Below, in pieces: positions 14,034 through 63,428 of a stretch of 64,000 nt of DNA (position 1 is the stretch's first letter; every line of letters starts with the position of its first letter). The notes below the pieces were generated by a model that saw only the letters and a program-made list of their open reading frames with translations, was not told where the DNA came from and searched no databases. Source of the DNA: Ditylenchus dipsaci (Eukaryota; Nematoda; Chromadorea; Rhabditida; Anguinidae); assembly GCA_004194705.1 (NCBI GenBank), contig SADC01000007.1, positions 62,001-126,000 of the forward strand, written 5' to 3'. A program made the position numbers and the translations under genes.

Positions 14034-17000
14034 ATGTGCTCTCAATTGAACTATTTGCTAACAAAACTCGACTTTTTAATCGACAAATACAAACGTCAAA
14101 AAAGGTTGGATGGCGAGCATCTATTTCATTCGGAGTGGAATCGTCGGCTTGGGGCTTGCAGTGTGGCAGCTATTTGTATGTTTATTTGTTTACAAAAAAC
14201 GATTACACCATCAGGCAGCTCTGAAGTTTTAGTTTCTAATGAGCTACCCTTTATTGCATTATGTTTTAAAATGTAGTAAAAACGGTGAAATTATGAACAA
14301 AATTATTTTTTTTAAATTGATACTTTTATTTATTTTTGTTCGACATTTATCAGAAAGAGTCGCAACAAATAATACCTCGTAAGAAGTTATAATCCAAAAT
14401 CCGAAATCCAAATTCAAATTTATTTAATGTCAAAACAAAAAAAGTTTTCTACTAAGCAATTTTGCTTGTCATTTTTTTGTCATTTCTGGTGGAACGTCTT
14501 CTTCAACAGAATAACGGCTGAGAATTAAGGAATCTTCAGAGTGGCCCATAAAAATTCGGCCACCTTAAAAAAATTGAAGTACGTAACCCCTTGCAGGTCG
14601 GTTTCCGATTTTTGGGTGGCAAGTCCTCGGAAACCTCCTCAACAATGCCGGCTGTGATAAAGAGAAACACCACAAAGCTCCTAGGTAGCTTAACGAGTGC
14701 CATCGATTTTCCTGGGGAAGAGAGATGTGGCAAGGAGCTACCTACGCAAATTTTTTTCAAGTGGCCGCTTTTTTTGGACCACCCTGTACACTCTGTGAGA
14801 ACAAGCTTTTTTCATTTCTGAAACCAAGACCGTACCACTTGTTGTTCCGGTAAAAATTTTTAAAATTAAAGATCACTCGCTACATACTATAACTTTTCAT
14901 ACTGACATCTGTCACAGTAAATTTTTTCATCGTCTTGCAGCGAAAAAATAGGATTCCGATCGAAAACAACATGAAAAAATGCAAAACAAATAATTACAGT
15001 AGTTCTGCATGACAAAACTGGGTTGACTTCGGAACTCATGCTGTTTCCGGAGTCATCTATCTGACTCCAAAGTCATCGATTTGACTCCGAAGTCAACGAT
15101 TTTGACACCGAAGTCAAGCGTGAGTTGGGGAAGTCTGAGTAGGCCTTTAATAATTTGTTTGTTTTGATTTGTTTAAAGAAAAAATTCCAGAATTTCGGAT
15201 TTACTCTCTTATTTACAAATTCCCGTTTCCCGTCGCGATTCCCGAAATTTTGGGATTCCCATTCCCGTTTCCCGCAGGAGCAATTTTTTTTCAAATTTCC
15301 ATTCCGTTTCCCGCCCGGACCCCAAACTGCCAAGCCTACTGTTTATCTTGTGCTTAGGCGCAGGGTAGACCAGCGTATGTTAGGACACACTCAAACTCGT
15401 TCTGCGAACGAACAAAAAGCAAGAAAAACAAATTCTCGATAATATACACCAGAAGTTTTTTAAAATTGTACCCATTTTTTGTACCCAGTCATAATGTGTG
15501 CCCAGTCGTTGGCCTGTCTAAAATGAAATTTGCGTCGAAAAAGTAAATTTGCCGTTTGAAAACACCTTCGAAAATTAACTAAAGTTTTAGCCGGAACAAT
15601 GACACTTTCACTCACATTTTACGTAGTGCTTCCAAAACTACTTGCCAGTTTTGCCAATCGAATGGTTCTTCCATTGTCACCACCTTTTGCGGCCTTCGCC
15701 CTAGCATTCGTTATATTTTTTTTGGCTGGCAAGTCTTATAAGGTGGCTAATTTCACCTATAAATCTATTCGATTTCCAGCATATCAAATGTCCTTTATAT
15801 CCGAGCAGATTCCAAGAGCTGTCTTCTTTACAACTTTGCCTACTCCACCCACAGTGAAGCATTTGCATTTGTGGTTGGTTGGAGTCAACTGATGGACTGG
15901 CTGGCCATATTGACTGTTCTGGTGCACAATATTTCGGACAGTGTGGTATATAGAGCCAAATTCTGTGCTCAAAATTAACTTATTGTATAATCTAATTAAC
16001 TTTTTCATTAGAATTTGCTTTTTCACAACATCATTGAGGACAACCTCAAAATGGACTGGCTGAGGTATGAAAATGTGTTTGGCGCGTCATCACCATATCA
16101 AATGTCCAATGTTGTGCACCCCTCGATTGGTTTGCGTTGCTCATTGTTTTGATTTCTGGGGCTCTTCTTTGCTGCAGCTTACGGGTCGGTTTTAAATTGG
16201 TATATTTTATAAATAAAAAATTTACAAGAGTCAAACATTTATGACCCTACTCCAATCAGACCATTCATAGTAAAGCAAACCAAAGAAACGAGAAAAGTAA
16301 GTAAAGTTATCAAAAAAAATATTTGTCCTATTTTATCGATCAGAACTTCGAGTTAGGGTTAGCAGCTTCGGAGGGTATCGCCCTTAAAGACCATGAAACT
16401 TGATGAGCACAGCAATTTGCGGAATTTGAATTCGCGCGGACCACCCTAATTTTGTCCATAATGTTTTTGAATTAATTCTTTTGTGTGCAATAAAAATTTG
16501 AATTCCATTTATGAGTAAGTTTTTAACACGCTGTCGCATAAATAGTTACGACGCAGTGAAAGTAGTATAAGTCGTCTTATCTGCCAGAACGTTGCTCGAC
16601 TGGCAATGTCGAGCAACGTTGGGCTCGACTAGTGAACTATGTTTTAAAAAATTTCACACGCAAACAAAAACTATTTGTAAAAATTATTGACAAAATTAGG
16701 GTGGTCCCGCGCGAATTCAAAACTTCTAAATTGCTGTGCTTATCAAGTTTTATGGTCTTTTAACTAGAGATGGGCATTTGCGTTTGCCCAATACCAATAC
16801 CAATATTTTTTGGCCCTCTCTAGACCCAATACCAATACCAATATTTCAAAGATGTGAACCCCAATATATTGCCCAATACCAATATTTTTTCAAAAGTCTA
16901 TTTTTTCACCAAAATATTGAAAAAAATTCCCTAATTCAGTCTAATCTCGATTTAGTAACACACTGGAACTGATTTTTTGGCATGAAGAAACGAAACTTGA

Positions 17001-20000
17001 TCTATTTCGGTTTTTATTAGGTTATTAGTTGAAATGTGCTCGGAAATCGAATAATCGAGCAATTTTTAAACTCAAGTTTGTACGAATTAAATTTCGGACG
17101 ATCTGAATTTCGGACTAATTAACATTGGGCGAACTGATTTTTGGACGAAAAATTAATGTCATTGCACCAGCTGTCGAATGTGGAGAAATCATTTGAAATA
17201 AATCTTGTTATGGTGTTGCACAATTGTGGAAAAGAAAACTCGATTTTGTTTAAAAAAATCACTTCTGGGTAAGAACTTCTGACATTAGTTTTTTTAATCA
17301 CCAAAAAGTTTTGAGTATAGGAAAGTATTTTCGTTAAAAGGGGTGTGTAGTTCAGGTCCGGCATATTCAAAAATTTTGAGCGGAAAGCCGTAAAACATAT
17401 TTCTTATGAAATTTATCTCTGTACGAGAATACTGCTCCAGCATTGACCCTTCTAGACAGAGCTCCGTGTTCCCTCTTTCTCTCAATCCTGGTAGAATATG
17501 CTTTAGCAATAAACATAAAAAATGTCGCTTCTAGTTGTAAGAAGTTCCAAAATTTTAAAATGAGTTTCCTCCGAAGTCATGCTGCAGTTGTTTTATTTGC
17601 CTTACAAATTTTCAAAATATTGATGTAGTGATTCAGAAAATTGTGAGACTGTTGATATTTGCTGATGAAGATGGTGTTAAGAAGAAAAACAAATTTGTTC
17701 ACATTAATTTTCCGCTCGAGATAACTTTTTAAATATTCCGGACCTAAAGTACACGTCCCCTTCAAGTTTTTTCTTCGAAAAAAGACAATTTAAGTGAATC
17801 AATGAAATAATAATAAAAAAATTTGTTTAATGTCATCCATTAGGCCAAAAAAAATGAGAAAATATGAGTGAAAATTTGAAATTTCCATTGGAAAAATTTC
17901 ATTATTTAGCACCCAATATCTTTGCCAAACCCAATACCAATACCAATATTTTCGAAAGTCACCAACCAATATCCCAATACCAATATTAACGCCTTTATTT
18001 GACCCAATACCCCAATATCCAATACCAATATATTGTTTTTCCCATCTCTACTTTTAACAATGTAAGAAAATTTTGCAGTAAACATAAATGTTTTTTGGCT
18101 ATCTTTAGTGCGCGCGTAGTCCCACGTGGATCCTCTGCACTTTCCGACCAATCCTTTGTGCCCCAATTTTTTTGCATCTACAGGGTGTCCAACAGTCATG
18201 AGCATTTTGCCTTTTTGTAAATTCAAAAGGGCAAAAAATTTGCCCTTTTTTCGCCCTAAGCCTTTTCTTTAATTTTAATTGCTAATTCTTGAGATTATAA
18301 TTTTCTAGTGAAAATAGAGAGAGAAAATTCATACACGCAACATATGTGGTTAGATATGGTTCGTAAAAAGAAAAGGCGCAAATTCGAACAAACTTTAAAA
18401 ATGTCTGTGTTTTATTCGATACAAGGGAGAGCATTTTGACCTTTTGCCGAAAAATTTGCCCTTTTAAAAAAATTGCCTCCCCCCTTTGCCCAGACAATTG
18501 TTTGCCTTTTAGGCAAATTGCCCTAAAAGGGCAATTTGCCTAAAAGCAAAAAATTGCCTTTTTAGGGTAAAAAAAAATTGCCTTTAAATTTTTTCGCCCT
18601 TTTGCCATTTTAGTTTACAAAAAGGTAAAATACTCATCCCTCGTGTCCAATAACAATACGGACACTTTTAAAGTTTGTTTGAATTCGCGCCCTTTCTTTT
18701 TACGAACCATATCTAACCACGTATTTTGCATGTATGAATTTTCTCTCTCTATTTTTACTAGAAAATTATAATCTCAAGAATTAGCAATTAAAATTAAGGT
18801 ACTTCTTCCGTTGGGGGACAAAACTCAATTTTTTATTTTCATTTTTCGTTCGTTTTTTTAAGTTATTTTTTCTGTTATTCACTTTTCTTATGGTTGTTTC
18901 TGTAATCTCATTCTGTTATTTTCAGATGGAAGAATTGCGTAATTTCACTCTCGAGAAGCCATATTTCGAGTCATATTTCTGACTTTGTTTGGCGTAAAAA
19001 ATTAATGGACCAGATATTATGTTCCATTTATGGTCCCAGATTGCTGAATTGTATAAAATTTGAGTGTTTAATAAAATTGAGTTTTGTCCCCCAACGGAAG
19101 AAGTACCAAAATTAATTATTTCCAAATAAAAATTAACGTTTAACAGACAAGAAAAAATACGTTGTTGGATTATACCGTTGTCGTATTGCGTCTCCTGTTT
19201 TTTCTTTAAATCCTCTAACTCAAAAGTTGGTCTATTAAGTGTAATAATCATTGTAGCTAAAGCTAGATTTAAAATTGTTGGTTGGAAACCCCGAAAAAAA
19301 TTTGAGATTTAACCGTTGCACGGAAGTCCTTGCCAATTTTTTTTTAATCTGTGTGTTTTTATTGGACACCCTGTAAGGTCCGTCTTTGTATGGTATTTTG
19401 CATGTGTGGGTGGTTGGGTGGATAGCCATTTTGTGTTCAAGACTGATTTTTTGCCGTGTTCAGCAGACTCATGTGAGATATTTTACCGGAACACTGAAGT
19501 ACAACATCTTATCTTTCTTTTAAGCACAGACGCGTAAAATTGAAGTAACTTCTGAAAAAATTCCTTGTCCTCCAAACTGGAGATAGTTGATTTTGGCTTG
19601 GACTTTGGTGGATTTTTTTGTTCATGCCTAATTTCCTGCTAATTTTTGCGAACTTAAGTCAGTTAGTTCACAGGAACCCATAAGTAAAACTTTGTAGCTT
19701 CTTTATAAGCACAAAAGCGTAAAATTTAAGTTGATTCTAACTCATTTTCGGTTGCTTTCCAAACTGGAAATGGTCGATTTTGTCTCGGACTTTGGGTACC
19801 GTATTCACTGTATTAACCCTAGGACTACAAGATTTTAAATAATTTTTTAAAATTCTTTTAGCTTTAAAAAACATGTAGTTATGGAGTAAACATTTTTTAA
19901 ATTATAAATTAATGTCTGAAGAACATTTTTGTTTTTAAAATTTTTTTTCAACCCGCTTTTTAACATGAAATAAATTAAATCTTCAAAAAACTAGCATCTT

Positions 20001-23000: not shown

Positions 23001-26000
23001 AGCGAACTGGTTGAGCTTGCCGAAATAAAGAAAACGCAATAAAAGCTTTACAGAGTATTAAGAATAATTGTTGACATACAGACCCTAAAAGTTAAGAGAG
23101 GCCGCTAATAAGAGAGAGCACGGGGTCAAAATTTATGTCCGCTTTTGTTGGCGCCGATTGGCGCCTGTTGCACCCTAGTTTTATAATACCACAGTTTAAT
23201 CTCGATAAGGCCACGCTATAAATGAAAACTTTTCTTTGGGAATTAGGATAAGACTTTTCGTGTAAGTTCACTCTCGGTGGTCTTATATTGAGAGTGGACT
23301 GTACTGTTTTCGAGAATGACAGATAATCAGGGTTTTCCAAAGGAGTGAGCTCTGATTTTAGGGGGATGTGAGGTTCGAACCTTAGCTATACATATATGTT
23401 ATAGGTTTTGATCACCATCTCTGTGGTCTTTCTAATTTCTGCCCTATTCACAGTCACTAGTACTACAGTTGTTGCCTTGCTTCACAATATTGCCCATCTG
23501 CGGGTCAACTATTTAGACGTTCCGGAAAGTTTTGACGAGGTTAGTTCGAAAAAATGTGCCCAATTTTTAATCTTCAAAATAAGCAATTTCAGTTGTTCAA
23601 TTCCTGCTGCTTTTTCCTTCTCGGCTTCCTAGCAATCGAGTCCTTGAGCTTTTTGGCGGATGAAACAGAGCAGCCGGGCAAAGTGATCCGTCAATTTTTA
23701 AGTGTTCAGTCAAATGCAATTGCCTGGTCACCTTTTTGGCGCTACTCTCTTTCTTCCCGTTCATCTATAGAATTTCTTTCACTGAGGACACTGTGCTCCC
23801 AGTGGTATTCAATTCTATCAGCATATTCTCGGCCAGGTTGGTTTAGACCATGAATATAGAAGTTGTAAGCAGTGCTGTAAATGGCACCGGTGCGGTGCCC
23901 GGTGCCGAAATTTTAGAGGTCGGTGCCCGGTGCGGTGCCCGGTGCCGAAATTTCAGAGGTCGGTGCCCGTGCCGAAATTTCAGAGGTCGGTGCCGAACCA
24001 GTGCCGCACCAGCAAGTGGTATGTATCATACCCGGCAAAAGCTAACTAAGTTATAATTCGCCTCGAAACAACACAATTATGTCGATAACATAGTTCATTT
24101 TTGCAATTTAGCTGAAAAAATTCAAAATTAAATTGATAATTTTTTTAACATATATAAAAAAATGTCCGGTGCGACACCGGCACCGGCAGCACCGGCTCCG
24201 GCACCGGCACCGCCGGTGCCCGGTGCGGTGCCCGGTGCCGAAAATTTGGAGGTCGGTGCCCGGTGCGGTGCCTGGTGCCGAAATTTTGGAGGTCGGTGCC
24301 CGGTGCGGTGCCCGGTGTCAAAATTTTCTAGGCCGGTGCCCGGTGCGGTGCCGGTGCCGAAATTCCAAAATTTACAGCACTGGTTGTAAGGGTAGACCGT
24401 CTAGTAAGACATCAAAATTTTATGAAATATTTATTTACACTTATTTATTAATGCATTAATTAAATGCAAATAAATATACTCTATATGCATTTTTGAAAAA
24501 GAGTCTTACTCGGAATCATGTCTAAGGTACGTGGGTGTGCGCATCTCAATCCCAAGCCACCAAGCCCCGTGCTCCCCCTAAGGGGGCGCAGGGGGCTTGA
24601 TGTGTTAGAAATATTCCATTGGCGACGAGCATGCCCTCTAACCGCAATTTTCGTTGATAATGGCTCATCTGGCTCATCTCTAAATTTGAAAATTTTAAAT
24701 TGGCGCCTTCTGAATTTTGAAGGGATTAAGGGCTGTATAGGGAGGGGAGGGGAATAAAAGGGGCCACTAATCACACAAGGCCTACTAACAAGAAGATATT
24801 GAACAAACTTTTGAATGCTGGGGACTACCGCATAAAGATACTCTGGTATGCATGCTTTTTCATGCATCCAGAGTCACTTTCGAGTGATTTGTGTCCAAGG
24901 TATGTGGGTGTGCGCATCTCAACTCCAATCCCCAAGCCCCCTGCCCCCGAAGGGAGAAAGCCCCGAAGACACAAATCACTCGAAAGTGACTCTGGATGCA
25001 TGAAAAAGCATGCATACCAAAGTTTATTTATGCGGTAGGCCCCAGTATTCAAAACTTTGTTCAACATCTTCTTGTTAGTAGGTCCTGCGTGATTAGTGGC
25101 TCTTTTATTCCCTCTCCCTCCCAATACAGTCCTTATTCAAATTTTTCAAATTTTTATTAAAAAAGCATGATACACTCCCTGTGGTTCGAAATTTTTTTTT
25201 CTCAGATTAAAAAAAAACGCACGGCTTTCTCATGAAATCGGGGTCGAGCAACACGAATATGAGGTTATCTTCTCCATCCAAGCACTCCCCGTAGGTGAGG
25301 GATTCGTCACTGCAACCGCCAACTTTTTACGCAGATTCCGAAAATATTATCAGAATATGTCTTTTGAAAAATCTCATGAAAAACATAAAAATTGACCAAA
25401 ACATTCATACCGTATTTCCCCCACATGCCCTTTTTCTATTCGAATCGTGATGCTGTCATTGTATTTGGTTACTTTTTCTGGACAGCTAGTATACAACTTA
25501 CTGCTGAGACGGTAGCAAAGACAGTATGCTACATTTTGAGTGGTATGTTGCCGAATAACTATCTTTAAAAACCCAAAACAACAAGGCATAACACAAATAT
25601 CTTAGAGAGGCACGTGAGGAAAATACAGCATGAATGGTTTGGTCAGCTTTTATGTTTTTCATGAGATTTTTTGAAAGATATTTCGATTCTGATAACATTT
25701 TCGGATTCTTCGTAAAAAGTTGGCCAAGGGATGTATTAACAGATGAAAAATTATCAACAAAAAGTGCGGTTAAGAAAACAAAACAATAATAGTCAAAAAT
25801 CCCACGCAACATGCACCCTCCCTTCAAATTCTAAATTCACAGTCAAACTTAAAATATTGAATTATGAATTATGAAATTTAAGAGTGATTTGAAAATTTGA
25901 AAAAACACTCACAAGTAGGGTTGTCGAGCGCTCGAAATTTTTGAGTCGGGCGCTCGATTCGACATTCGAAATTTTCAGCGTCTTCGCCAGCTCATTAATG

Positions 26001-28741
26001 GATTTTTTAGAAATAAATTAATCGAAACCATGGTTAATCGACCACACATGACCACTTTACCACACCAAACAAATAAGCGGTCAAAAAAGAACTACCATTG
26101 CTTGTCCATAGTTGTGCTTGATCAAACGGCGCAGATACGGAGACTCTGAGATCGAAAAGGGCAAATTAGAATCCGCAATAAAATTAGCCATGTCGTTGGT
26201 TAATAGCTGGCTCTGCTGCTTGGAATACCCTGGACTGAATAGAGTTACAATCGGCTCCACTCTGACTTTTTTCGCCTCGGAAGGTCCCAATTCTTTGTTC
26301 GCTAAATTTTTCTTGTGCCTTGCCAATTTCAGGTGACCCGAAAGATGAGTTGTTGATCCACTCTTTGGCAGTGTAAGCTCATCACCACAAGTGCAAATAG
26401 CCTATCCACCGACTTTCTTGAACGATTTCCAAACTTCGCTTGGCATTTTTCCAAAACAAGAAAAATTCACAATTACATTCTTTTTGTGTGCTGCAAGTTC
26501 CAAACTATAACTCGAACTCGAAATTCGAAAGCATAATTCGAAATTTTTTTGAGCGCTCGAAATTCGAAATTGTTCGAACTTTCGAGCGAAAAGTTCGAAA
26601 TTGAGCGCTCGATTCGACAACCTTACTCACAAGCAAATCGACCATGCTGAACACAAACCCGAAGTCAGAATTTGGTTTTTTGCGAAATTATCTCCCGCTG
26701 TATTCTCGACATGCCTAATTTAGCTGTCCATTTTTCAGATACCTGATGAATGTAGGATCGATATGCGGACTGGCCTCCGCTGTGTTGTGTGCCTACCTTC
26801 CAACTACTCGTATCGTGTGTGCCTTGGCTGAGGATCGACTTCTGCCTTTCCAATCTTCGAAGTGCAAGTTGAATCGATTGCATGGAAAAGGTGGCTCTCC
26901 TCGACTGGCTGTTTTGACCACTGTGTTTATCGTCTGCTTGTTGGTGGTCTTAGTCCCCAAGCCGTTGATGGTCCAGTTAATACCGCTCAATCTGTGCTTT
27001 CGTCTCTTTTCACTGGTTAGTTTTAGGTATCGTCAAATGTATCTCTAAATGAACCGAAACCATTTCAGGCATTTCTAGTCTTCAAATCCAACTTCGCCTC
27101 TGAAAAGTCATCTCAGTTTGTGACACAATCACTGCCCGCCAAATACAATCGAATGAGGCATTGTGGCGTGTCTTCAATGACCAACTCCAACTCAGCCGCC
27201 TCAAGTTCAGATGTGGAGGATGGACGTTCAGAATTCTCTTCCAATGGTGACATAGATGATGAGGGCATGCGTCTGTTTGAGCAAATGTGCCAGCTGACCA
27301 ATCTTACAAACTGCCACGATTGCAACTATGGTGCCATTGGAGAGGTTTGTTATTTTTGTTATAGGTTTGAGGTTTGTCAATTTTGATGTTTTTATAAATA
27401 TAATGTCTATTTTAGCCAACTGAATCATCCGGGTTGCTGGTACCACCATCTGGTATTTCAAACAACAATATGCCTCAGCATTACTGTGCTACTTCACAGG
27501 TCAATTTTTTGGGCTATGAAAAAATTTATTCTTTGCAGCCTGTATTTTTCAGAATCTGCTTTCACAGATCGATTCAGTTTCTTTTTATCTTACATCCCCT
27601 ACCCTCCCCGTAGTTAATGATACTTTCATGTAGGCAACGGCCTAAACCAAAGGGAACCAAGGGAAGGTTGTGTTTTTGACACTATATACCGAGTAAATTC
27701 TCATCGCAAGATAAGCCGATCTGTAAAAAAATTTAAAAAATGATCTATAAAAAAGTTGCAGGCAGATAAAGGTCTCTAAAATTTTTGGGACACTCTCAAA
27801 CACTTATTTTTACAAGGGATTAAACATTTGCAAAATTGACTTGACCCCTTTCTATCTTTAAAAATAAAAAAATCGATACTTTATTTTCTAAATCACACTG
27901 ACTTTAAATAAGGGTTATTTAATTAATGGTAAAAACTGATAAATATAGAAAAGCGAAAAAAATTAAAAGCCAACTTTGTCTGCTACCATTTTTAATTTCT
28001 CCATTGTTTCAGAACCGACACTTGCCTAGAGTGCACAACTGCCTGACCTCACCATGTGCATCGAGTCTCCAAATTTCAGCTGCATGTGGCCCATCCACTC
28101 ATCGGCCCACTTCCACATTTACGACACCAAAAGTGTATGTGCTAATCTGGACATGGTAGCGGCGGGCGGTGTTGGCCCAGAATACTATCAGAACGCATAC
28201 TCTTGCACTTCTCCTCATGGTGATACTTTTGCAGACGCTGAGAGTGCCGAAAAGATTGCTCACAAATTGCTTACTAGTTTTGTGATCCTGACTGTGTTGG
28301 TGGCCATTTCACACAAGATTTTACGGGAAACAGTCAGTTGTTAAGACAATCTTTCCACGGTTAACTGTGTGGACAACCTGATATTTTAGAAGGAGTATGT
28401 GCCTGTTCTTGCACTCATTTCAGCCGTTTTGGGCCTTCTTCTGTCTCTGGGATAATAGTGCAGATATTCAGACTCAAAACAGAGGATGATTACGGTTTTG
28501 CAGCCAATAATGTGAGCAGCACGCCGCCGGAAGAGACCAGGAAAAGGAGTAGATGGCAGAGTGTTGGCTGTTTGTTGTCCATGTTCCTGTTGATTCAATT
28601 GCTCTTCCAATTCCCATTGATCAAATATATGTTGGTTGTAGGATGGATATGCTTGGGTAGGTAAACTTATCCCTAGTGTAATTATGGTCATTTTTAGGAT
28701 TCGTGATGTATTCCATAAGTGTATGCAAGAAGAAGGTCTAA
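14034..28741 (+). CDS. Cationic amino acid transporter-like protein (SLC7A / CAT family), complete
   Basis: Predicted plasma-membrane or lysosomal amino acid permease with about 14 TM segments, about 762 aa after frame repair. Exons: 14034-14175, 15591-15732, 15780-15945, 16012-16199, 23405-23539, 23593-23836, 26739-27015, 27069-27344, 27416-27499, 28013-28332, 28390-28656, 28698-28741 (TAA). Family-like landmarks in order: NRRLGACSVAAI|SGTMTL (TM1), SPPFAAFALAFVIF (TM2), STHSEAFAFVVGW (TM3), DWFALLIVLISG, GFLAIESLSFLADETEQPGK (the CAT 'GFD...EE..NP' segment), YLMNVGSICGLAS then TRIVCALAEDRLLPF, and LGFVMYSISV near the end. A hydrophilic Ser/Asn/acidic insert of about 200 residues (about 445-640) precedes the last four helices, making it longer than typical CATs (620-660). 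Frame breaks fall at C 16119-16122, T 23695-23699, CC 28052-28053 and G 28449-28451. Divergent, so substrate is unknown. Exon 2/3 junction and exon 4 end are my choices. Confidence 0.87.
14537..14788. mobile_element. Second copy of the ACAGGGTGG MITE
   Basis: Same interior as 613-865 (GTACGTAACCCCTTGC, GGTCGGTTTCCGATTTT, CTCCTAGGTAGCTTAACG) with more diverged ends CAGAGTGGCCC and GGACCACCCTGTA. Inserted in CAT intron 1. Confidence 0.85.
16384..16763. mobile_element. TTAA-flanked fold-back element
   Basis: TTAA on both sides, inverted ends AGACCATGAAACTTGATGAG and CAAGTTTTATGGTCT. Inner arms share GAATTCGCGCGGACCACCC and its complement. Same terminal type as the elements at 34555, 55217 and 59988 (AGGACCAT...ATGGTCCT). 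TTAA targets are typical of piggyBac-like transposases. CAT intron 4. Confidence 0.8.
16765..18050. mobile_element. hAT MITE with CCAATACCAATA words, 8-bp TSD
   Basis: Perfect TSD CTTTTAAC (16757-16764 and 18051-18058). TIRs TAGAGATGGGCA and CCCATCTCTA. CCCAATACCAATACCAATATT words fill both ends in opposite orientation. A second copy in the opposite orientation is at 48954-50408. No transposase seen inside. CAT intron 4. Confidence 0.93.
18179..19375. mobile_element. TA-flanked Tc1/mariner-type element
   Basis: Inverted ends CAGGGTGTCCAA (18181) and TTGGACACCCTG (ending 19373), with TA on both sides. It is split by the nested hAT element at 18193-18642. Inner arms share CTCAATTTTTTATTTTCA-like text and CCCCCAACGGAAGAAGTACC with its complement. 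No intact transposase ORF. Confidence 0.8.
18193..18642. mobile_element. Nested hAT MITE with AAAAGGGCAAATTGCC words
   Basis: TSD GTGTCCAA (18185-18192 and 18643-18650). Ends CAGTCATGAGCATTTT and AAAATACTCATCCCTC. The interior is made of inverted 'AAAAGGGCAAA/TTTGCCCTTTT' words. Because it duplicated part of the outer element's end, it inserted later. Confidence 0.88.
19376..20009. other. CAT intron 4 sequence without identified element
   Basis: AT-rich; two diverged stretches resemble each other (GACTTTGGTGGATT and GACTTTGGGTACC, CTCCAAACTGGAGATAGTTGATTTT and TTCCAAACTGGAAATGGTCGATTTT), suggesting an old local duplication. No exon found. Confidence 0.5.
20594..21235. repeat. Family A repeat, copy 1 of a near-identical pair
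   Basis: Starts GGTAGACCGTCTAGTAAG and runs through CATGTCTAAGGTACGTG, the GC hairpin, TACTCTGGTATGCATGC, and TCACTTTCGAGTGATTTG. It matches 24391-24945 almost base for base; most differences I can see are homopolymer lengths. It holds two hairpin modules in tandem. Confidence 0.9.
21306..21551. mobile_element. TACCGTA MITE, 'AACTCCCC' version
   Basis: Ends TACCGTATTTTCTCTATTAA and a TACGGTA terminus; terminal words TAAGTCCACC/TAATAACTCCCC. The core (AATCTGTTTTTTGCG, GATCTTAGTTGATTCC, CGAAAATCTCAAAATCGAAA) is shared with 53496-53742 and 61795-62057, but the terminal words differ. Confidence 0.85.
21937..22010 (+). other. tRNA-like (pol III A/B box) sequence, left arm
   Basis: A-box-like TGGCGCAGTGCG at 21943-21954 and B-box-like GTTTCGATCCC at 21991-22001, spaced as in a tRNA gene. 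The acceptor stem does not pair well, so this is a tRNA-derived SINE head rather than a tRNA gene. Confidence 0.55.
22132..22207 (-). other. tRNA-like (pol III A/B box) sequence, right arm
   Basis: Reverse strand shows TGGCGCAGTACG (22200-22189) and GGTTCGATTCC (22151-22141). It matches the left-arm copy; the B box here is the better fit to consensus. Confidence 0.6.
23140..23190 (-). repeat. Repeat head AACTAGGGTGCAACAGGCGCC
   Basis: On the minus strand, AACTAGGGT followed by CAGGCGCCAATCGGCGCC matches the heads at 30785, 48205 and 49261. It lies next to a TTATATTGAGAGTGGACTGTA element end (23270-23300). CAT intron 4. Confidence 0.6.
23870..24382. mobile_element. GC-rich hAT MITE with GGTGCCCGGTGCGGTGCC words
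   Basis: Perfect TSD GTTGTAAG (23862-23869 and 24383-24390). TIRs CAGTGCTGTAAAT and ATTTACAGCACTG match over at least 12 bp. Both ends consist of GGTGCCCGGTGC words, giving strongly GC-rich flanks around an AT-rich centre. About 510 bp, no coding capacity. CAT intron 6. Confidence 0.95.
24391..25090. repeat. Family A repeat, copy 2 of a near-identical pair
   Basis: Same as 20594-21140, with longer G runs at several matching places (for example AAGGGGGCGCAGGGGGC here against AAGGGGCGCAGGGGC). After the shared part it continues into an inverted hairpin module (TCACTCGAAAGTGACTCTGG, GCATGAAAAAGCATGC). Confidence 0.9.
25327..25727. repeat. Fold-back inverted repeat
   Basis: Arms of about 110-120 bp (GCAGATTCCGAAAATATTAT / ATCTCATGAAAAACATAAAA on the left, inverted on the right at 25610-25727). 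Minus-strand ORFs across it look like by-products of the arms. CAT intron 6. Confidence 0.8.
25916..26625. mobile_element. hAT element fragment with CGCTCGAAATTCGA words, 8-bp TSD
   Basis: Perfect TSD CTCACAAG (25908-25915 and 26626-26633). TIRs TAGGGTTGTCGAGCGCTCGA and TCGACAACCTTA. About 710 bp, carrying a minus-strand transposase N-terminus. CAT intron 6. Confidence 0.94.
26081..26410 (-). pseudogene. hAT transposase N-terminal fragment (BED-like finger)
   Basis: The minus strand reads ICTCGDELTLPKSGST, HLSGHLKLARHKKNL, then NFIADSNLPFSISESPYLRR, the last being the usual hAT motif after the BED finger. The zinc ligands look like C-x-C ... H-x4-5-H rather than C-x2-C. Only the N-terminus is present, so the element is non-autonomous. 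Confidence 0.8.
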
Positions 28742-32196: not shown

Positions 32197-32810
32197 CATA
32201 CCTGCACGCTGAGAAAAATCGGCGCTGGGCGCCACAATTAATTCGGCGCCGGTCGTCGGCGCCGGCGCCGACGCCTAAAAGAGGAAATACGGCGCCAGGC
32301 GCCGGCATCAAGCCATGTTTGTAAATAAAATAATAGAATGTAACAAAGACTAATCTAACATTTCATGTTTTTAAATAGAAATTTTTTGTATTTGGAATAG
32401 CAACAATTATGAGAAATTAAAAATTTATCATGTTGCTGTTATAAACAAGCATTGTTTTGCTTTTTAAAAGTACTGGGCCAGTGGAGCTTTTTCTGCCGGC
32501 TGTCAACATCTTCATCAGATAGTGGAGAACATCAAAAAAAAAGCAAAAACCGGTGATGAAATTTTGTGATTTACATGTGATAAACATAAAATAAAAATTA
32601 AAAATAAATAAAATAAATAATAAAAATTTACTATAAGATTAAAATAACTTGTCTGCAAAAAAATCTGAGAAAATTTTGAATTTACTAAAACATTGTCAAG
32701 ACAGCTGAAATCTTAACATTCAGGCGCCGGCGCCGCAGCTGAAGTGGCGCCGGGCGCCAGCGCCGGCGCCCGACTGTTAAGATTTTTTAGCCGGCGCCCG
32801 TGCAGGTATG
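32197..32810. mobile_element. hAT MITE with GGCGCCGGCGCC words, 8-bp TSD
   Basis: Perfect TSD CCAGTAGG (32189-32196 and 32811-32818). TIRs CATACCTGCACG and CGTGCAGGTATG. GGCGCC/GCCGGCGCC words fill both ends; the centre is AT-rich. About 614 bp, inserted into a family A copy. Confidence 0.95.
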
Positions 32811-35093: not shown

Positions 35094-35578
35094 TACGCTG
35101 TGGCCCGGTCAAAAAAATTTAGCGCCGGCGCCGACCATAATTTTTAATTGGCCCCGGCGCTGGAACAACACTGGTTCTAACATTCCCTGAACTGTTTACA
35201 AAATATTTGATGATAAACGTAAATGTATCCTTTGCATTTTGCTGTCTCTGCGAAAATTGTATTTGAGACTTTACAAGCAATTTCAAGTTTGGTTGAAATT
35301 GGATTTGTCCTGGTAGGAACAGGCAAAAAAAAGAATTTTCCCGGCAGATTTATTTTTTGAGTTTGTAAAGTGTGTTAATTGACATGTATTTCGCTGTTGC
35401 TCATCAGTTTGTGTTGAGAATTTTACATTAGAATCTTCATATGCGTTTGAAGGGGCATTAGGCGAATTGCTCCACGGCGAATCGATTCACAAGTGAATTG
35501 ATCCACAGGTGAATTGATCCACAGTGAATTAATCCACAGTGAATTGATCCCAGTGTGGGGAATACAGTTAATTTTAAC

Positions 35579-36129: not shown

Positions 36130-36192
36130 GTGCCAGACTCGAACTCGAGCAAAAGTTTTTTTTTGCCACCCTTCACCACTAGGCCATAGAAA
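36130..36192 (-). other. tRNA-like sequence in left arm of the 35551 element
   Basis: Reverse strand shows TGGCCTAGTGG (A box, 36186-36176) and GAGTTCGAGTCT (B box, 36146-36135). Paired with the + copy at 36388. Confidence 0.55.
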
Positions 36193-41900: not shown

Positions 41901-42436
41901 ACAATTATTTAAAAATCCAGTTAATGCCAATAAAGTGTGAAGCAAAAGTATTTGTTATTCATGTTGATTGCCATAATATTATCTTGACTTGTTTTAACAA
42001 TAAGAACAACTTTAAGTAAGAAAAAATGGTTAATTTTTCATATTTATAAAATTTAATTTTTAGGGTATTCAGATGGATATCCACCTGACGCAAGGAACAC
42101 CTACGTCACGAATTGGGACCGGAATGAGTAAAATTGTATTTTCGGTCCTAACAAACCCAATTCCATACACAATTTCACCTATTTTGTTTTTTTCAGATTA
42201 TGCAGATTGATATCCATCTAACCCAGGGAGAAACTACATGAGGTTTTGGGTTCGGGTGGGTAAAATCGCAGTCTCGATCATAACAAACCGACAAAACAAC
42301 AACATAACAAACCGACAAATACAAAGCAAACTTGACTAATAAAGTGTGAAGGAGAAGTATTTATTACTCGTGCTGACTGCCATAATATTATTTTGACTTG
42401 TTCAAACAACAAGAACACAAAAAGTGGTATAAAAAA

Positions 42437-43569
42437 TAGTGATGGAAATATTCAAATTTCGGGACTACCAGGACGGGACTTTTAGAAAAAAAATTTCGGG
42501 ACCGGGACCGGGACTTTTCAAAAATTTCACCGGGACCAGAAAAAAGTCCGATCGGGACTGTAAAAAGATAACCTTTAAAAAATTTGTAAATACTCTATTT
42601 TCTCAAATTTTGCGGCTTCTCGATTTCGAGGACAGGAAATATAGAAGATATGCATGGAAACAATGGGAAAAAGTTTCTGATCAAAAAATTTCAAAAATTG
42701 AATTTTTAATTTTCCGAATTTTTTCGGGCTATCCTGTATATTAGAGGTATGCACGGGATTGGGATCGCTCTCGAATCGGGAACCGCATTCCGAGGATTTT
42801 GATGTTGAATCCTGATCTCGAATCCCTCCCCATCGATTTTGAAAATCTCGATCCCGAAAATTGCCAACCCCAATGAGCATTTTAAAAATAATTTTTGGCC
42901 AGATAATTTTTGTTTTTACATAATTTTGTGGTTTTCATGCTAATCCCGATCCCGAATTCTTTTAAGGCCTCAATCCTGATCCCGAAATCTCTCTCGGGGC
43001 GAAATGCACACCTCTACTATATATGTCAGCATAGAGCGAATACTTTACATCGCTGTTTTTGTATTTTCTTAGTCCAACGAGCTCTACTGATCTCTTTTTA
43101 TGTTTATAGTTAAGCGCTCAAAAATTTTAAAATTGATCTCCAGTTTTTTGGATTTTGGATGTCTGAAAATTGAACGGCCGGCTGCATAATTAAATCAATA
43201 ATTAATATAGATTGATTAAAATCGAAAGTTTACTTAGAACTAAGTGTAAACAGTTCACTCTTGCACCATTTGTAAAGAGTTTACTTTAAACCCTCTTTTT
43301 TAGTTCGATAAGAAACAAACTCAGGCACAAACAAGAGTGTAATAATCATATGAGATCTAAAAACGACAAAAATAGACAGGAAAAAAACAAAAACCGCAAA
43401 AATTCTGTTGTAGGAAAATTAAATAAAAGTCCCGAATTTTTTCAAATTTTCGGGACCGGGACCGGGACTTTTGTTTCAAAATTTCGGGACCACCGGGACG
43501 GGACTTTTGCCTAAATTTTCTTCGGCGGGACGGGACTTTCGGGACCGTCCCGTCCCGCTTCCATCACTA
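42437..43569. mobile_element. hAT element with GGGACCGGGAC words, 8-bp TSD
   Basis: Perfect TSD ATAAAAAA (42429-42436 and 43570-43577). TIRs TAGTGATGGAA and TTCCATCACTA. GGGACCGGGACTTTT words at both ends in opposite orientation. Inside is a further CGGGATTGGGATC-type segment (42750-43015). No transposase found. Confidence 0.93.
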
Positions 43570-43673
43570 ATAAAAAAGCTAAATTCAAATAAATTTCTGT
43601 TAGACTTTACGTCTAAAATAGACGTACGTCTAAATAGACTTTATGTCTAAAATAGACGCACGTCTAAATAGAC

Positions 43674-44596
43674 GGTTATGGTTATATATTCCGCCGCGTA
43701 TATTCCGCCAACATATATTCCGCCAGCGTATATTCCGCCAACATATATTCTGCCAACATATATTCCGCCACATGCATGATTTATGTCTCAGGTATATGTG
43801 TGTGGGCATCTTAACCGCCTATTTTGCCTAGAACGATGTCCTGAGTTCATTAGTGAAGATCAAAAAGTAGTTTTCTGTCGCCAAATTTTCATAGTGTACT
43901 CAAGCCGTCTAGCTGGACATCCACATGGAGGAGGGAAAACTACCTCAGTTTCTAAGGTGTTGATAAATTCATGCCAGGTTTTGCATAAGTTGAAACTAGA
44001 TTCTACCAAAATTGTGGTTTTACCCACCTCGAGCCCAATAATTGGACCAGGCACCTCCTGGTCGGGTGGATATCCACCTTGATGGTCTGAAAAATTAAAA
44101 TTTAGTTGAAATTAATAACTAACCCTTGGACCTTAAAATTGCATAGGGAGTCGGGTTTGTTAGTACCGAAATTGAGATTTCCCCCATCCGGAGCGAAAAA
44201 CCTTGTGTAGGTATCCCTCGGTCAGGTATTTATCTTCCCAGATGGCCTAAAAAACAGTTCAAATCAATAACAAACCACTGTTCCAACCCTAAACTTTTCC
44301 GACAAAACCGAAAATTATGCCTATGGCTATACTCTGCCTTTCACTATGTCATTCATAGCTATGTCTATGACTCTGCGCTCATGAATTTTGAAACACCGCT
44401 GCAAATCATGGATGGCGAAAACGCAAAATTTCCCAAAAAAAAGTTTTTTCGGGTTGCGTGAATTCAAACTGCTGCAAAATGCATGTGGCGGAATATATGT
44501 TGGCGGAATATATGTTGGCGGAATATATGTGGCGGAATATATGTTGGCGGAATATACGTTGGCGGAATATACGCGGCGGAATATATGACCATAACC
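43674..44596. mobile_element. hAT element with ATATTCCGCCAAC words, 8-bp TSD
   Basis: Perfect TSD AAATAGAC (43666-43673 and 44597-44604). TIRs GGTTATGG and CCATAACC. About six ATATTCCGCCAAC words at the left face six GTTGGCGGAATAT words at the right. The target was the TAGACGT-word region of the outer element. Confidence 0.94.
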
Positions 44597-44714
44597 AAAT
44601 AGACTTATCTCAACTGAATAGACTTTATCTAGACTTGAAATGCGTCTAATACAGTCTATTTAGACGCGAAATCTCATCCCTGTCCCACACCTCATGTAAC
44701 GAAGATCTCAGATC

Positions 44715-48953: not shown

Positions 48954-50408
48954 TAGAGATGGGAACAAACAATATATTGGTATTGGGATATTGGGGTATT
49001 GGGTCAAACAAAGGCGTTAATATTGGTATTGGGATATTGGTTGGTGACTTTCGAAAATATTGGTATTGGTATTGGGTTTGAGAAAGATATTGGGTGCTAA
49101 ATAGTGAAATTTTTCCAATAGAAATTTCAAACTTTCACTAATATTTCCTCATTTTTTTCGGCCTAATGGATGATATTAAACAAGTTCTGACTCAGAAGTG
49201 ATTTTTTTGACAAAATCGAGCTTTCTTTTCCACAGTTGTGCAACACCATAACAAGATTTACTAAAGTCTACAGGCGCCTATCGGCGCCCATGTCGTTCGG
49301 GAACATTAGTGTTTCGGATACTCTCTGTTGTTCGAGTAGAACATCCACCCAAACTGTTAACCCACCTACTCTACCTTGCCTACCCTCATCTAGCATCGCC
49401 TATTCTCGCCTACCCTCGCTTATCCTCACCTATCCTCGCCAACCTCGCTTATTTCGATAATATAACGTACACTTGATCCGGTCCCAGGGTGTACGTTATA
49501 TCAAAAATTGACTGTAGAGGTTTCACCTGAACACTTAACTATCCTATCTGGCTACCTACCCACCCTAACTGGCCATTTACCTACCCTACCTGGTGGAAAA
49601 GCTTGAAAACAAAAATCCACCTTAAATCCAGGCTAAAATCAACCAACACCAATTTGGTGGGCAAGGAAAATTTTTTTTAAAGCAACTTTAATAATACGTG
49701 TTTCTGCTTAAAAAAACAAAGATGTTGTTCTTGAGGGTTCCGGAAAGATGTTAGACATAAAATTGCGAAAACTGGCCAAAAATTGGTTGTAAAACAATAA
49801 ATTCATTAAAAGTGTGACGGACGAATTGCCACCTGTTTTGAATTGTCCCCCGCCAATTCAAAAATTTTCGCCTAATCATTGAACTTCTGTACGGATTTCT
49901 AAGCTTGCTTTCTAACAAAACAAGGCCTAGAATTTAATTTCAGGTATGTTTGTGTTAGAAACCAAGTTGAAAAATCCGTGCAGAAGTTCAGTGATCAGGA
50001 AATGTTTTTGAATTGGCGAGGAACAACCGCTGTCTGAGACGGCAATGGCCCTTTAATTGGTTCGAAATTCAGATCGTCCGAAATTTTATTCGTACAAACT
50101 TAAGTTTAAAAATTGCTTGATTATTCGATTTCCGAGCACATTTCCATTAATAACCTAATAAATACCGAAATGGATCAATTTTCGTTTCTTTAGGCCAAGA
50201 AATCAGTTCCAGTGGGTTACTATATCGAGATAAGACTGAATTATGAACTTTTTTCAATATTTTGATGAAAAAATAGACTTTTGAAAAAATATTGGTATTG
50301 GGCAATATATTGGGGTCCAGGACTTTGAAATATTGGTATTGGTATTGGGTCTAGAGAGGGCCAAAAATATTGGTATTGGTATTGGGCAAAGGCAAATGCC
50401 CATCTCTA
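48954..50408. mobile_element. hAT MITE with ATTGGTATTGGG words (reverse copy of the 16765 element), 8-bp TSD
   Basis: Perfect TSD GTTTAAAC (48946-48953 and 50409-50416). TIRs TAGAGATGGGAA and GCCCATCTCTA. The interior matches 16765-18050 in reverse complement (for example AATCTTGTTATGGTGTTGCA). It is interrupted at about 49261-50052 by a CAGGCGCC-head repeat and a block ending GACGGCAATGGCCCTTTAA. Confidence 0.92.
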
Positions 50409-53393: not shown

Positions 53394-53495
53394 CAGTGTT
53401 GTCCATTTGGCTCGCGCGAGCCAAACGAAAGACCGAAAATCGCATGATCTAATGAGCAATATAGGTTCGAGCCATATGGCTCGCCTTTATTTATA

Positions 53496-53742
53496 TACCG
53501 TAAAACCTCTATTAAACGGACACCTTCTAATAAACGGGCACCCTCAAGGACCTATATCTCAGCGCAAAAAAAAATTCTGCAAATCTGTTTTTCGCGTTTT
53601 CTTGATCACCTCGATCTTAGTTGATTCCGCTTTTCAGATTTTTTCGAGTACCCAAAAATCTCAAAATCAAAATATTTTTTTTTCGATTTTTTAGGGGTTG
53701 AAAATTAAACGGGCATGCCCGTTTAATAGAGGTTATACGGTA
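53496..53742. mobile_element. TACCGTA MITE, 'AAACGGACACC' version
   Basis: Ends TACCGTAAAACCTCTATTAA and a TACGGTA terminus (TAATAGAGGTTATACGGTA). Core AAATCTGTTTTTCGCGTTTT, GATCTTAGTTGATTCC, AAAATCTCAAAATC shared with 21306 and 61795; terminal words ATAAACGGGCACC are its own. Confidence 0.87.
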
Positions 53743-54128
53743 TGCGAGCCAATTGGCTCGCGTACTGGTTTTTTTAAAGCGAGCGAACACGAGTCAAAAC
53801 AATACGCGCCGTTTGTATCGCGAACCATTTGGCTCGCAAACATAAACTAATGGTTCGGTTCGCGCTTTTTATGTGAGTTTTGAACGTCAATTTATTGTTA
53901 AAGACAATAAAAGAATAAATAAATTGTTACTAGCTTAATATCTGCGAAAAATCAGTCAAAAAATTGAAAAAAATGAAAAATAAACTAGATTTAAGCTTTA
54001 TTTTTGATTAAACACTATTATCCGCGAGCCGAACCATACGCTTATTTCAGATGCGAGCCAAATGGCTCGCGAGCTAGAAAGCTCTTGTCACTTTATTCTT
54101 TAACTTAGCGAGCCATATGGCTCGCGAG

Positions 54129-54762
54129 AGGGGTGTCGAGCCCTCGAAAATTTCGAGCCCTCGGCTCGACGGCTCGACACGGCTCGAAATTTTTCGAGGG
54201 CTCGGCTCGAAGCTCAAAAGACTCGAATATTTTTCATATTTACATTGATTTTTTGAATTGCCGCTAAAAATATTGACCGTAAATTTCATAAATTTTATTA
54301 TACATATTCATTGGCAACGCTTTTTTGTACGCTATTTTTTCTCTTTGCTAAACGCTTCATTGTTCAGGTAACAATGCCAAGCAGCGTGTGGAATTCGAGA
54401 GTCGGTTTTGTCAAGATTAGTAATAAGACAGTGTGCGCTTGCGGAGAAGAGCTGAATTTGAGCAAAAGCGGTGCAACTTCACATCTCTCCAGGCACTTAG
54501 AATCCACAAGGCACAAGGAAGTTTTTGAAAGAAGCAGCTGCCAAGAACGAAAAAGAACGGGACGAAATAGTTGATTTATTGTTGGAAGAAAAAGTTTGAA
54601 TATTGTATTTAAATTTTGTTGGTAAAAATTTATTGAAGCTTGAAGTTTGAAGATTTTGAGGGCTCGAAGCTCGAAATTTTTGAGGGCTCGGCTCGAAGCT
54701 CGAAAAAAAAGTCGAGCTTCGAGCCGAAAGCTCGATTTTGAGCCCTCGGCTCGACAACCCTG
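54129..54762. mobile_element. hAT element fragment with GGCTCGAAGCTCGA words
   Basis: CTCGCGAG flanks both sides (54121-54128 and 54763-54770), with one extra base at the right border. Ends AGGGGTGTCGAGCCCTCGA and TCGGCTCGACAACCCTG. It is a relative of 25916-26625 with the word CGCTCGA replaced by GGCTCGA. Contains a BED-like finger ORF. Confidence 0.87.
54374..54574 (+). pseudogene. hAT transposase N-terminal BED-like finger
   Basis: Starts MPSSVWNSRVGFVKI, then VCACGEELNLSKSGATSH and LSRHLESTRHKEV, then stops. It aligns with the minus-strand fragment at 26330-26410, including the C-x-C spacing. No catalytic part follows. Confidence 0.75.
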
Positions 54763-55499
54763 CTCGCGAGCCATACGGCTCTCCAAGTTAGCTATTTGGC
54801 GAGCGAGCAGCTCGCGTGCTTTAGGGGGCGCGAGCTGCTCGCTCGCAAACGAGCCAAATGCACAACACTGCTCTTGGCCATCCAACAAGAATAGCAGCGC
54901 AGGCTTTAACACCTACTGAAGCTTGTATCTAGGGTAAAATAGACTAAATTTCCGAAAATTGATAGTTTTTGAAGGGTTTTCATTGACTGGTTTTTTTTGA
55001 TATTTTATGACCTTTTTATAGGTCACACCTTTCATATACAGGGTGTCCCACGAATTTTTTCACTTTGTTTTTAAATTATTGTCAATTTTTTCAAGACATT
55101 TGACAACGAGTTCGGTCTCATTAGAAATCTTGGCGAAAAGCAATTTTTATGGTGTGAAATAAGGGGTATATAAGTTTAGGATAAAGAGATCATGAGATTA
55201 GGATAAGAATTCCACATTAAAGGACCATTGCCGTCTACGGCCACGGAAATTTGGACTTTTTGAATTGGCGGGGGACAGCTAAATTACTGCGAAAATATTT
55301 TTTGAATTATTTTTTATTTTCATTTTTAAGTTATAATTTATGTGTATTGGCCGAAGCGAGTCTTCCAGAACTATAAGTAAGTTGTAGTGCAGTGGCTGTG
55401 TTAGATCTTGTCCGATCTGGCAATGTCAAGCAACGTTAGGCTCGACTAGGAGATTGTTCAAAATTTTTTCCAAAATTTTAATTGGGTAATATTTAAGGC

Positions 55500-62456: not shown

Positions 62457-63428
62457 CAGTGATGTTTTGTGTACACATGTAAACGCTCAAATGTTTTGTT
62501 TTGCGGTTACATTTTTGTAAACAAATGTACACAAAAGATTTCGAGTTTTTGTTTTTGAACATTTATAAAAATTTAAATTTTCTCATTTTCATTTCTGTAC
62601 ACAAATGAAAATCGGGAAATTTTTGTGTACGTTTGTGTACACAAATGAAACTGAAAATATCTTTGTTTACGTTTGTGTACACAAATCAAATGTCGAAAAA
62701 GTTTGTGTACGTTTGTGTACACGAATGAAAATCAGAAAATGTTTGTGTACGTTTGTGTACACAAATAAAAAGTCAAAAAGTTTTGTGTAGGTTTATGTAC
62801 ACAAATAAAAACTCTGAAAATTTTGTTTATGTTTGTGTACACATGGAAAAAATATTGTACACAACACAAAACAACAATGTTTTATTGCATTAACAATGTG
62901 TACTATACTAATTAATTACAAAAACATTCTTTCTCGGGATATTGTGCACGATAACGAGTCATGTTAGAAGCTCGATCTCATTTTTGGATTTCAAAACCCG
63001 GATAAGAACATAGAGTTTTCACATTTATGCACTTTTATGAGTTTTTTTACCAGTATTTTGCTTTTTATTGTGTCGCGTACAATATTTTTTCCATGTGTAC
63101 ACAAACATAAACAAAATTTCAGAGTTTTTATTTGTGTACATAAACCTACACAAAACTTTTTGACTTTTTATTTGTGTACACAAACGTACACAAACATTTT
63201 CTGATTTTCATTCGTGTACACAAACGTACACAAACTTTTTCGACATTTGATTTGTGTACACAAACGTACACATAAATTTCCTGATTTTCATTTGTGTACA
63301 GAAATGAAAATGAGAAAATTTAAATTTTCATAAATGTTCAAAAACAAAAACGAAATATTTTTTGCTTTCTTGTGTTTACAAAAATGAAAATTTTTCGTAC
63401 ACAAAAATTTGTAAAGAAAACAACACTG
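62457..63428. mobile_element. Palindromic hAT MITE with TGTGTACACAAA words, 8-bp TSD
   Basis: Perfect TSD CTCTGGAT (62449-62456 and 63429-63436). Ends CAGTGATGTTTTGTGT and a CACTG end. About six units of a 37-40 bp TTTGTGTACGTTTGTGTACA repeat per arm, arms nearly perfect complements over about 370 bp. It inserted into the hairpin of the 61780 family A element. Confidence 0.95.

What the first reader, a model, noticed from the sequence alone, without database searches (positions are those of the whole stretch)
16765..63428. A crowd of hAT-type MITE families, each built from its own short subterminal word
At least fifteen elements have matching 8-bp TSDs, yet the families share little sequence. 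Each fills both ends, in opposite orientation, with its own short word: CCAATACCAATA (16765, 48954), AAAAGGGCAAA (18193), GGTGCCCGGTGC (23870), CGCTCGAAATTCGA (25916), GGCGCCGGCGCC (32197), AGTTAAAATTAACT (35551), GGGACGGGAC (35579, 42437), TAGACGTAAAGTCTA (39178), ATATTCCGCC (43674), GGCTCGAAGCTCGA (54129), TGTGTACACAAA (62457). hAT transposases are known to bind subterminal repeats. What is unusual here is how extreme and how varied this is within 50 kb. One reading is rapid co-divergence of transposases and their binding words.
Basis: partly seen in the sequence, partly recalled or inferred. Interest (0 to 1): 0.85.

Follow-up and report, generated by a model that had tools for sequence, protein, structure and literature searches.

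The report
Transposons with switching zinc-finger binding words
This genome is crowded with jumping genes of the hAT kind whose two ends are filled with many copies of one short DNA word, and some related families appear to have changed that word at nearly all its positions together with the part of their own enzyme that probably reads it.

Summary
The elements are real. Exact 8-bp TSDs in 12 of 17 window candidates; a TIR+TSD scan gave 28 hits (22 distinct elements) at the true offset and 0 at ten shifted offsets; 19 of 29 genome copies not chosen by TSD are exact (three of them by eye). Correction: words mostly run in the SAME direction at both ends (23 of 40 elements; opposite in 9). Transposase-bearing hAT elements carry such arrays too (21 of 32 loci). 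In two groups sharing TIR and layout the word differs concertedly: TCGA followed by A, G, C or T; and TCCCG, TCCCA or TCCGG. At 25-31% background divergence the diagnostic base changed at 30 of 32 sites between word classes and 0 of 33 within one (base picked after seeing the alignment). BED-finger nearest neighbours share the word in 20 of 20, which linkage alone predicts too; enrichment at Hermes contact positions is weak (P 0.04, 0.19). Best reading: arrays are BED binding sites that switch with finger specificity. Binding was not tested. That hAT fingers bind subterminal words is known; seven searches listed no report of concerted switching.

The parts
   Evidence: CAGTGTTTT at both ends; word AAAACGAAA 21 of 24 window copies near its ends; C-terminal piece matches Dimer_Tnp_hAT at E 0.0053, below cut-off; no matching TSD found
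16765..18050 (.). CCAATA element 1, TSD CTTTTAAC, words in direct orientation
   Evidence: 20-mer of the word 214 times in the genome, pattern read backwards 0
18193..18642 (.). GGGCAAA element, TSD GTGTCCAA
23870..24382 (.). GGTGCC element, TSD GTTGTAAG
   Evidence: boundaries; TSDs of other copies
25916..26625 (-). CTCGAAATTCGA element (group A class 1), TSD CTCACAAG, retains a BED finger fragment with one stop on the - strand
32197..32810 (.). GGCGCC element, TSD CCAGTAGG; TIR CATACCTGCACG is not hAT-like
35551..36727 (.). AGTTAAAATTAACT element, TSD ATTGATCC, TIR CAGTGTGGGGAATA
35579..35874 (.). GGGACGGGAC element 1, nested in the former, TSD ATTTTAAC
   Evidence: boundaries; TSDs of other copies
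39178..44682 (+). TAGACG element, TSD TCCCACAC, with a broken hAT C-terminal domain and nested elements that split its right array
   Evidence: window 41733-41798 matches Dimer_Tnp_hAT E 3.4e-6
42437..43569 (.). GGGACGGGACTTTT element 2, TSD ATAAAAAA; relatives L009, L014, L017, L036 enclose hAT domains
42742..43016 (.). CCCGATCCCGAA element nested in the former, TSD 7 of 8
43674..44596 (.). ATATTCCGCC element, TSD AAATAGAC, TIR GGTTATGG (not hAT-like), words in opposite orientation
48954..50408 (.). CCAATA element 2, TSD GTTTAAAC
53394..54870 (.). GGCTCGCGAGCC element, TSD 6 of 8, hosts the next
54129..54762 (+). GGCTCGA element (group A class 6) retaining an open BED finger
   Evidence: BED at 54401-54538; arrays; TSD CTCGCGAG by eye; one search used edges one base to the right
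62457..63428 (.). GTGTACAC element, TSD CTCTGGAT
   Evidence: boundaries; TSDs of other copies

Best explanation
These are hAT-superfamily transposons and internally deleted derivatives (MITEs). Shown: short TIR, 8-bp TSD, and at each end an array (roughly 100-450 bp by eye) of one family-specific word; transposase-bearing relatives in the same genome carry the same kind of array. Inferred from known hAT biology: the words are binding sites of the transposase's N-terminal BED zinc finger, many fingers of an oligomer docking on many words to load and pair the ends, and MITEs keep the words because they borrow the enzyme. Shown in two groups of related elements: TIR and array layout are kept but the word differs at nearly every copy by one diagnostic base (TCGA+A/G/C/T; TCCCG, TCCCA or TCCGG), and each word class has its own BED finger type. 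Inferred: finger specificity and word change together, either by selection on the whole array or by one matched unit spreading through it; a possible driver is escape from the many MITEs that compete for the same enzyme.
For: TSDs and controls. Arrays against shuffles: 39 of 40; left end's best right end is its own in 26 of 40, and 10 of the 14 misses go to an element with the same or a similar word. Elements enclosing a hAT domain with TIR, exact TSD and word array at 21 of 32 loci (best placements read by eye, the second-ranked one taken at L021 and L026; several are one family: L009/14/17/36, L021/25, L022/39, L037/38). hAT C-terminal domain E 2.9e-17, 1.5e-16, 4.6e-16 in L021, L023, L026. 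Group A: all three columns in which classes 1, 2, 4, 5 have four different letters show one pattern up to complement (706 of 100000 permutations reach this); a fourth slot agrees in class-2 copies L045 and L060 and is out of phase in the others. Group B: diagnostic base changed 11/11 (L019), 10/11 (L062), 9/10 (L063) with 27-31% of other bases changed, and 0/11 in each of L010, L011 inner, L027 with 25-28% changed; TCCGG elements changed another base at 8-9 of 10-11 sites. BED class against word class: nearest neighbour agrees 20 of 20, 0 of 5000 shuffles. Hermes base-contact positions (PMC10368747 section 7) differ more between classes in group A: 0.68 against 0.38, P 0.041. Published: motifs of four hAT proteins match subterminal regions of their own elements (PMC8097297 passages).
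Against: Array and finger lie in one element, so concordance also follows from descent. Word classes were assigned by eye and diagnostic bases and slots picked after seeing the alignments. Independent switches are few (7 classes in each group; class 5 of group A rests on L055 alone, classes 3 and 4 on two copies each), and no tree was built: the groups rest on TIR and finger similarity. Contact enrichment is not significant in group B (P 0.19; 0.060 for -1/-4 alone) nor in its TAGTGTTGG subset (P 0.20 and 0.21); other positions vary too. The group A finger is a weak zf-BED match (E 0.032, below cut-off), the group B finger hits no zf-BED (best another zinc finger family, E 0.054), and two further transposase pieces hit no Pfam family. 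L027 mixes CGGGAA and CGGGAT units. L050 (of 20) and L061 (of 15) have a finger and no array in the fetched stretch.
Confidence: 0.7

Rival explanations
1. Neutral concerted evolution: units within an array and between the two ends are homogenised by gene conversion, slippage or gap repair after excision; a new variant unit spreads by drift, and the finger differs only because lineages diverged.
For: Array and BED are physically linked, so they agree by descent (cannot separate this). Both ends of an element share the word.
Against: Layout and spacers stay aligned without gaps over about 55-75 bases in group A while the diagnostic base changes at slots on both strands; slippage should change layout, though gene conversion need not. 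Contact positions are more variable in group A (weak).
Confidence: 0.2
2. Ordinary satellites or low-complexity DNA that happen to lie at element ends.
For: Some words are short and AT-rich and occur elsewhere singly.
Against: In the three families tested genome-wide the arrays lie inside TIR-bounded elements with TSDs; the CCAATA 20-mer occurs 214 times against 0 for its reverse.
Confidence: 0.02
3. Mutation bias (for example CpG decay) turned CCCG into CCCA in a whole lineage.
For: CCCG to CCCA is a CpG transition, and all 11 sites changed in L019.
Against: CGGG, CCGG and TCCG outside the changed words remain in L063 (by eye); group A shows all four bases at the slot and TCCGG differs by C to G.
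Confidence: 0.03
4. Some window families are not hAT: ATATTCCGCC (TIR GGTTATGG) and GGCGCC (TIR CATACCTGC) may belong to another superfamily with 8-bp TSDs. This concerns two families and does not exclude the main reading.
For: Their TIRs lack the CAGNG/TAGNG start; no transposase for them was looked for or found here.
Against: 8/8 TSDs and the same array architecture.
Confidence: 0.4

Closest known systems
Hermes (hAT, house fly) and its BED-bound subterminal repeats
   Same: BED finger at the N-terminus binds short words scattered in the ends; 17 and 14 AAG(T/C) motifs at left and right end, mostly in one orientation per end near the tips; base contacts by Q64, S66, N67, R70 just before zinc ligand H71 (PMC10368747 sections 7-8)
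   Different: Hermes words are scattered 4-mers; here dense arrays of longer words, dozens of different words in one genome, and related elements with replaced words
CGGBPs and hAT-19-type fingers (Yellan et al. 2021)
   Same: Related hAT fingers bind different motifs; motifs of four hAT proteins match subterminal regions of their own elements (PMC8097297, abstract and passages)
   Different: That work measured binding of mostly domesticated proteins; the passages seen do not describe concerted replacement of words in sister elements
Ac/Ds, Tag1, Tol2 (plant and fish hAT)
   Same: Need about 100-200 bp of end sequence for transposition (PMC10368747 passage); the Ac word AAACGG is recalled, from no call
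   Different: I recall one main word per element and no series of sister elements with switched words; not checked by a call
Galileo / Foldback (P superfamily)
   Same: Long inverted ends with several binding sites for the transposase's THAP finger (title and start of abstract in a listing, PMC3688188)
   Different: Other superfamily and other finger

Membership tests
hAT superfamily | 8-bp target site duplication | tested here: met
   12 of 17 window candidates exact; 19 of 29 genome copies not chosen by TSD exact (and three by eye)
hAT superfamily | Short TIR starting CAGNG or TAGNG | tested here: met
   Met in most elements; not met in 43674-44596 and 32197-32810, which are therefore not filed as hAT members here
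hAT superfamily | Transposase with hAT C-terminal dimerisation domain | tested here: met
   PF05699: 150 scored of 2005 candidates in the genome; inside TIR/TSD/array elements at 21 of 32 fetched loci; window 39178-44682 E 3.4e-6; window 10958-13575 E 0.0053, below cut-off
hAT superfamily | N-terminal BED zinc finger | tested here: inconclusive
   C/C/H/H finger near the 5' end in groups A and B, but Pfam zf-BED only E 0.032 in group A and no zf-BED hit in group B; 11 zf-BED matches in the genome from 150 scored candidates
hAT-type MITE | Non-autonomous, ends shared with an autonomous element | tested here: inconclusive
   GGGAC and group A window elements have transposase- or finger-bearing relatives with the same kind of word, none shown to be intact; others not tested; 25916, 39178 and 54129 keep coding fragments and are deletion derivatives rather than strict MITEs
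Subterminal transposase-binding repeats | Transposase binds the word | not testable with these tools
   No binding data for these fingers

The most novel reading that the evidence does not exclude
Within single groups of related elements in one genome, hAT transposases have repeatedly changed the DNA word they read, and nearly every copy of the word at their ends has been replaced in step within a fixed array layout (group A has used TCGA followed by A, G, C and T). Residues at -1, -4 and -5 before the first zinc-ligating histidine set the word, so the genome is a natural table of BED-finger recognition, and the switches are driven by escape from the element's own MITE parasites.
Probability: 0.4. 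Interest if true: 0.85.

Novelty: new variant of a known kind. Interest (0 to 1): 0.74.

Why it matters
How a transposase changes its end sequences, when both ends and many sites must change with it, is an open puzzle. Here sister elements that differ by one word letter at nearly all sites, with different fingers, give directly testable before-and-after pairs, and a set of paired fingers and words from which a BED recognition code could be read. It also suggests a reason for the great number of MITE families in one genome.

Tried and rejected
Protein database search with the group B finger: no candidate. PDB sequence search with a piece of L020: no match. Counts of single words as a test of confinement to ends: uninformative or negative for short AT-rich words. 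Satellite explanation rejected for three families by boundaries and TSDs. Contact-position test: weak and reported as such. No element was accepted around the hAT domain at L012, L013, L015, L016, L018, L024, L029, L030, L031, L033, L040 (11 of 32 loci; L015, L030 and L031 had candidates without a hAT-like TIR that I did not count).

Rows dropped: of the 20 loci L041-L060, L044, L050 and L053 (no TIR upstream of the finger) and L054 (disrupted) were left out of the end alignments; L044 and L053, which have partial arrays, were used in the nearest-neighbour test, L050 and L054 were not. L031 (finger as in L034) was left out of both. L048 and L049 were left out of the consensus for one-base deletions. 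W54, L041 and L034 were left out of the slot analysis because their layout differs. In the nearest-neighbour test 20 of 22 rows are scored; L055 and L034 are single members of their class. Of the 15 loci L061-L075, 13 have an array; L075 has a few GGCGGCCAA-like units without a TIR seen (by eye) and L061 none; only seven fingers, one per word class, entered for each group.
Full report
WHAT WAS CHECKED. The whole window was read. It is G000:C7:62001-126000 of a 227-Mb assembly. TIR and TSD placement for 17 candidate elements gave exact 8-bp TSDs for 12. A scan of the window and 28 fetched loci (TIR start motif, TIR >= 9 of 12, TSD 8 of 8) found 28 hits, which are 22 distinct elements because some loci overlap, and none at ten shifted offsets. 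To avoid choosing by TSD, 29 genome copies of three window families (10, 9 and 10 with both ends matched) were taken from DNA searches and only their edges were fetched. The script placed both TIRs in 25 and found 16 exact and 19 at >= 7 of 8; of the 4 with a variant TIR, three are exact by eye and one is not, which makes 19 of 29 exact and 22 of 29 at >= 7 of 8. Mismatched pairs reached 7 of 8 in 3 of 600.

ARRAYS. In 40 elements (15 window, 25 from loci; the latter were found by TIR and TSD) the fraction of end sequence covered by 6-mers present three or more times exceeded the maximum of 100 dinucleotide shuffles in 39. The left end's most similar right end among all 40 was its own in 26; 10 of the 14 misses went to an element with the same or a similar word, the other four are the element with a nested insertion, CCCGAT, L011b and L015b. 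In DNA searches with 30-bp flanks, other copies end near the TIRs: none beyond 8 bases in GGTGCC, 5 of 38 main copies beyond 8 in GGGAC1 (C906, C107 twice, C1353, C1337), 7 matches beyond 8 in GTGTACAC; C1346, a redundant contig, matches through the flanks in all three. Only the best 40 candidates were scored in each search.

TRANSPOSASES. PF05699 gave 150 scored matches of 2005 candidates in the genome. Of 32 loci fetched around such matches, 21 have an element with TIR, exact TSD and word array enclosing the domain (read by eye from the best placements). Their words include ACCGGTTAACCGG, CGGGAA, TGGGATT, GCGGCTA, GGCCCGGGCC, ATGTGCCC, ATGAAAATTTTCAT, GGGACGGGAC, GTTCGAACG, TGCGAGAT and ATATCGCGAT. 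So the words are not a MITE peculiarity. Pfam finds the hAT C-terminal domain in the C-terminal pieces of L021, L023 and L026 and in window 41733-41798, below cut-off in the GAAAACGAAA element, and nothing in four other pieces. Many frames are broken and no copy was shown to be intact.

CONCERTED WORD CHANGE. Searching the genome with the finger of window element 54129 gave 150 scored matches (of 245 candidates); I fetched 20 stretches. With the L027 finger there were 70 matches, of which I fetched 15. In the first set 17 have TIR and array upstream, two a partial array without TIR, one none (by eye). In the second set 13 have an array, one a few units without TIR, one none (by eye). Group A elements start TAGGGTTGTCG and align without gaps for about 55-75 bases, yet TCGA is followed by A in one class, G in another, C in a third and T in a fourth at corresponding slots; a further class uses CCGG, and two more (GGCTCGA; TTCGAACG) have other layouts. 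In class consensus strings all three columns with four different letters show one pattern up to complement; 706 of 100000 within-column permutations do so. In group B the base that distinguishes TCCCG from TCCCA changed at 11 of 11 sites in L019, 10 of 11 in L062 and 9 of 10 in L063, and at 0 of 11 in each of L010, L011 (inner) and L027, although the other bases differ by 27-31% in the former and 25-28% in the latter. In six TCCGG elements another base of the word changed at 8 or 9 of 10-11 sites while the CpG base changed at 2-4. The classes and diagnostic bases were recognised by eye first, so these numbers describe how uniform the change is; they are not blind tests. 'Group' means shared TIR and similar finger; no tree was built.

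FINGERS. Group A fingers fall into the same classes as the words: nearest neighbour agrees in 20 of 20 testable, within-class differences 3.8 of 29 on average, between-class 12.1. In the Hermes crystal structure base contacts are made by residues 1, 4, 5 and 7 before the zinc ligand H71 (PMC10368747 section 7); which histidine of the present fingers corresponds to H71 is my assignment. At these positions the classes differ by 0.68 on average against 0.38 elsewhere in group A (P 0.041) and 0.61 against 0.45 in group B (P 0.19); for -1 and -4 alone P is 0.032 and 0.060; in the TAGTGTTGG subset of group B P is 0.20 and 0.21. In group B the TCCCA elements have F at -6 and V at -1 where TCCCG elements have V and S/T; TCCGG elements have V at -6 and V at -1. 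The finger is more divergent than the C-terminal domain in all six pairs compared (four elements).

INTERPRETATION. Shown: hAT-type elements with uniform family-specific arrays, and concerted difference of the word between related elements. Inferred: the word is the finger's binding site and both switch together. The published finding that motifs of four hAT proteins match subterminal regions of their own elements (PMC8097297 passages) makes the first inference likely. The alternative, neutral homogenisation with finger and word linked by descent, is not excluded; the conserved layout speaks against slippage but not against gene conversion. The MITE-escape driver is conjecture.

NOVELTY. Subterminal binding words are a known hAT feature. 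Seven literature searches listed no paper whose title or shown abstract reports concerted word replacement among sister hAT elements. I saw sections and passages of PMC10368747, the outline, abstract and passages of PMC8097297, the outline and abstract of PMC2872659, and otherwise listings only, so this is a limited check; Repbase was not available.

Noticed in passing
G000:C1346 against the window contig C7: C1346 repeats C7 in reverse with unchanged spacing: hit coordinates sum to 332744 at three places over 82 kb, so the assembly is redundant here and genome counts are inflated.
   Followed up: partly
window 48300-48850, also 30960-31140 and 49370-49450: CCTCGCCTACCCTCGCC-type minisatellite, each time after a unit with GGTCTGCAGGCGCCTATCGGCGCC or a close variant (near 30790, 48218, 49270); looks like a repeated mobile unit of another kind (by eye).
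   Followed up: no
window 20585-22700, 24400-25320, 31700-32190, 33296-33980, 51180-51930, 62260-62460: Repeats with variants of ACTCTGGATGCATGAAAAAGCATGCATACCAGAGT and long inverted arms (by eye); the GTGTACAC element sits in one of them.
   Followed up: no
window 34087-35084: GGGATCC-like words at both ends of about 1 kb without a clear TSD (best 5 of 8).
   Followed up: partly
window 2-8 kb, 23.4-28.7 kb, 45.3-47.4 kb: Exons that look by eye like a V-ATPase a subunit, an amino-acid transporter and a NUF2-like kinetochore protein; introns end in TTTTCAG-type sites.
   Followed up: no
L067 and L070: Two elements with similar GGGTAACCCGCGGG words and the same helix SVSTLIRHLKQH but somewhat different starts (TAGTGTTGGGGG and TAGTGTTGATGT).
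   Followed up: no
L075: A distant finger (35% identity to the query) with a few GGCGGCCAA-like units upstream and no TIR seen; possibly a further word class.
   Followed up: no
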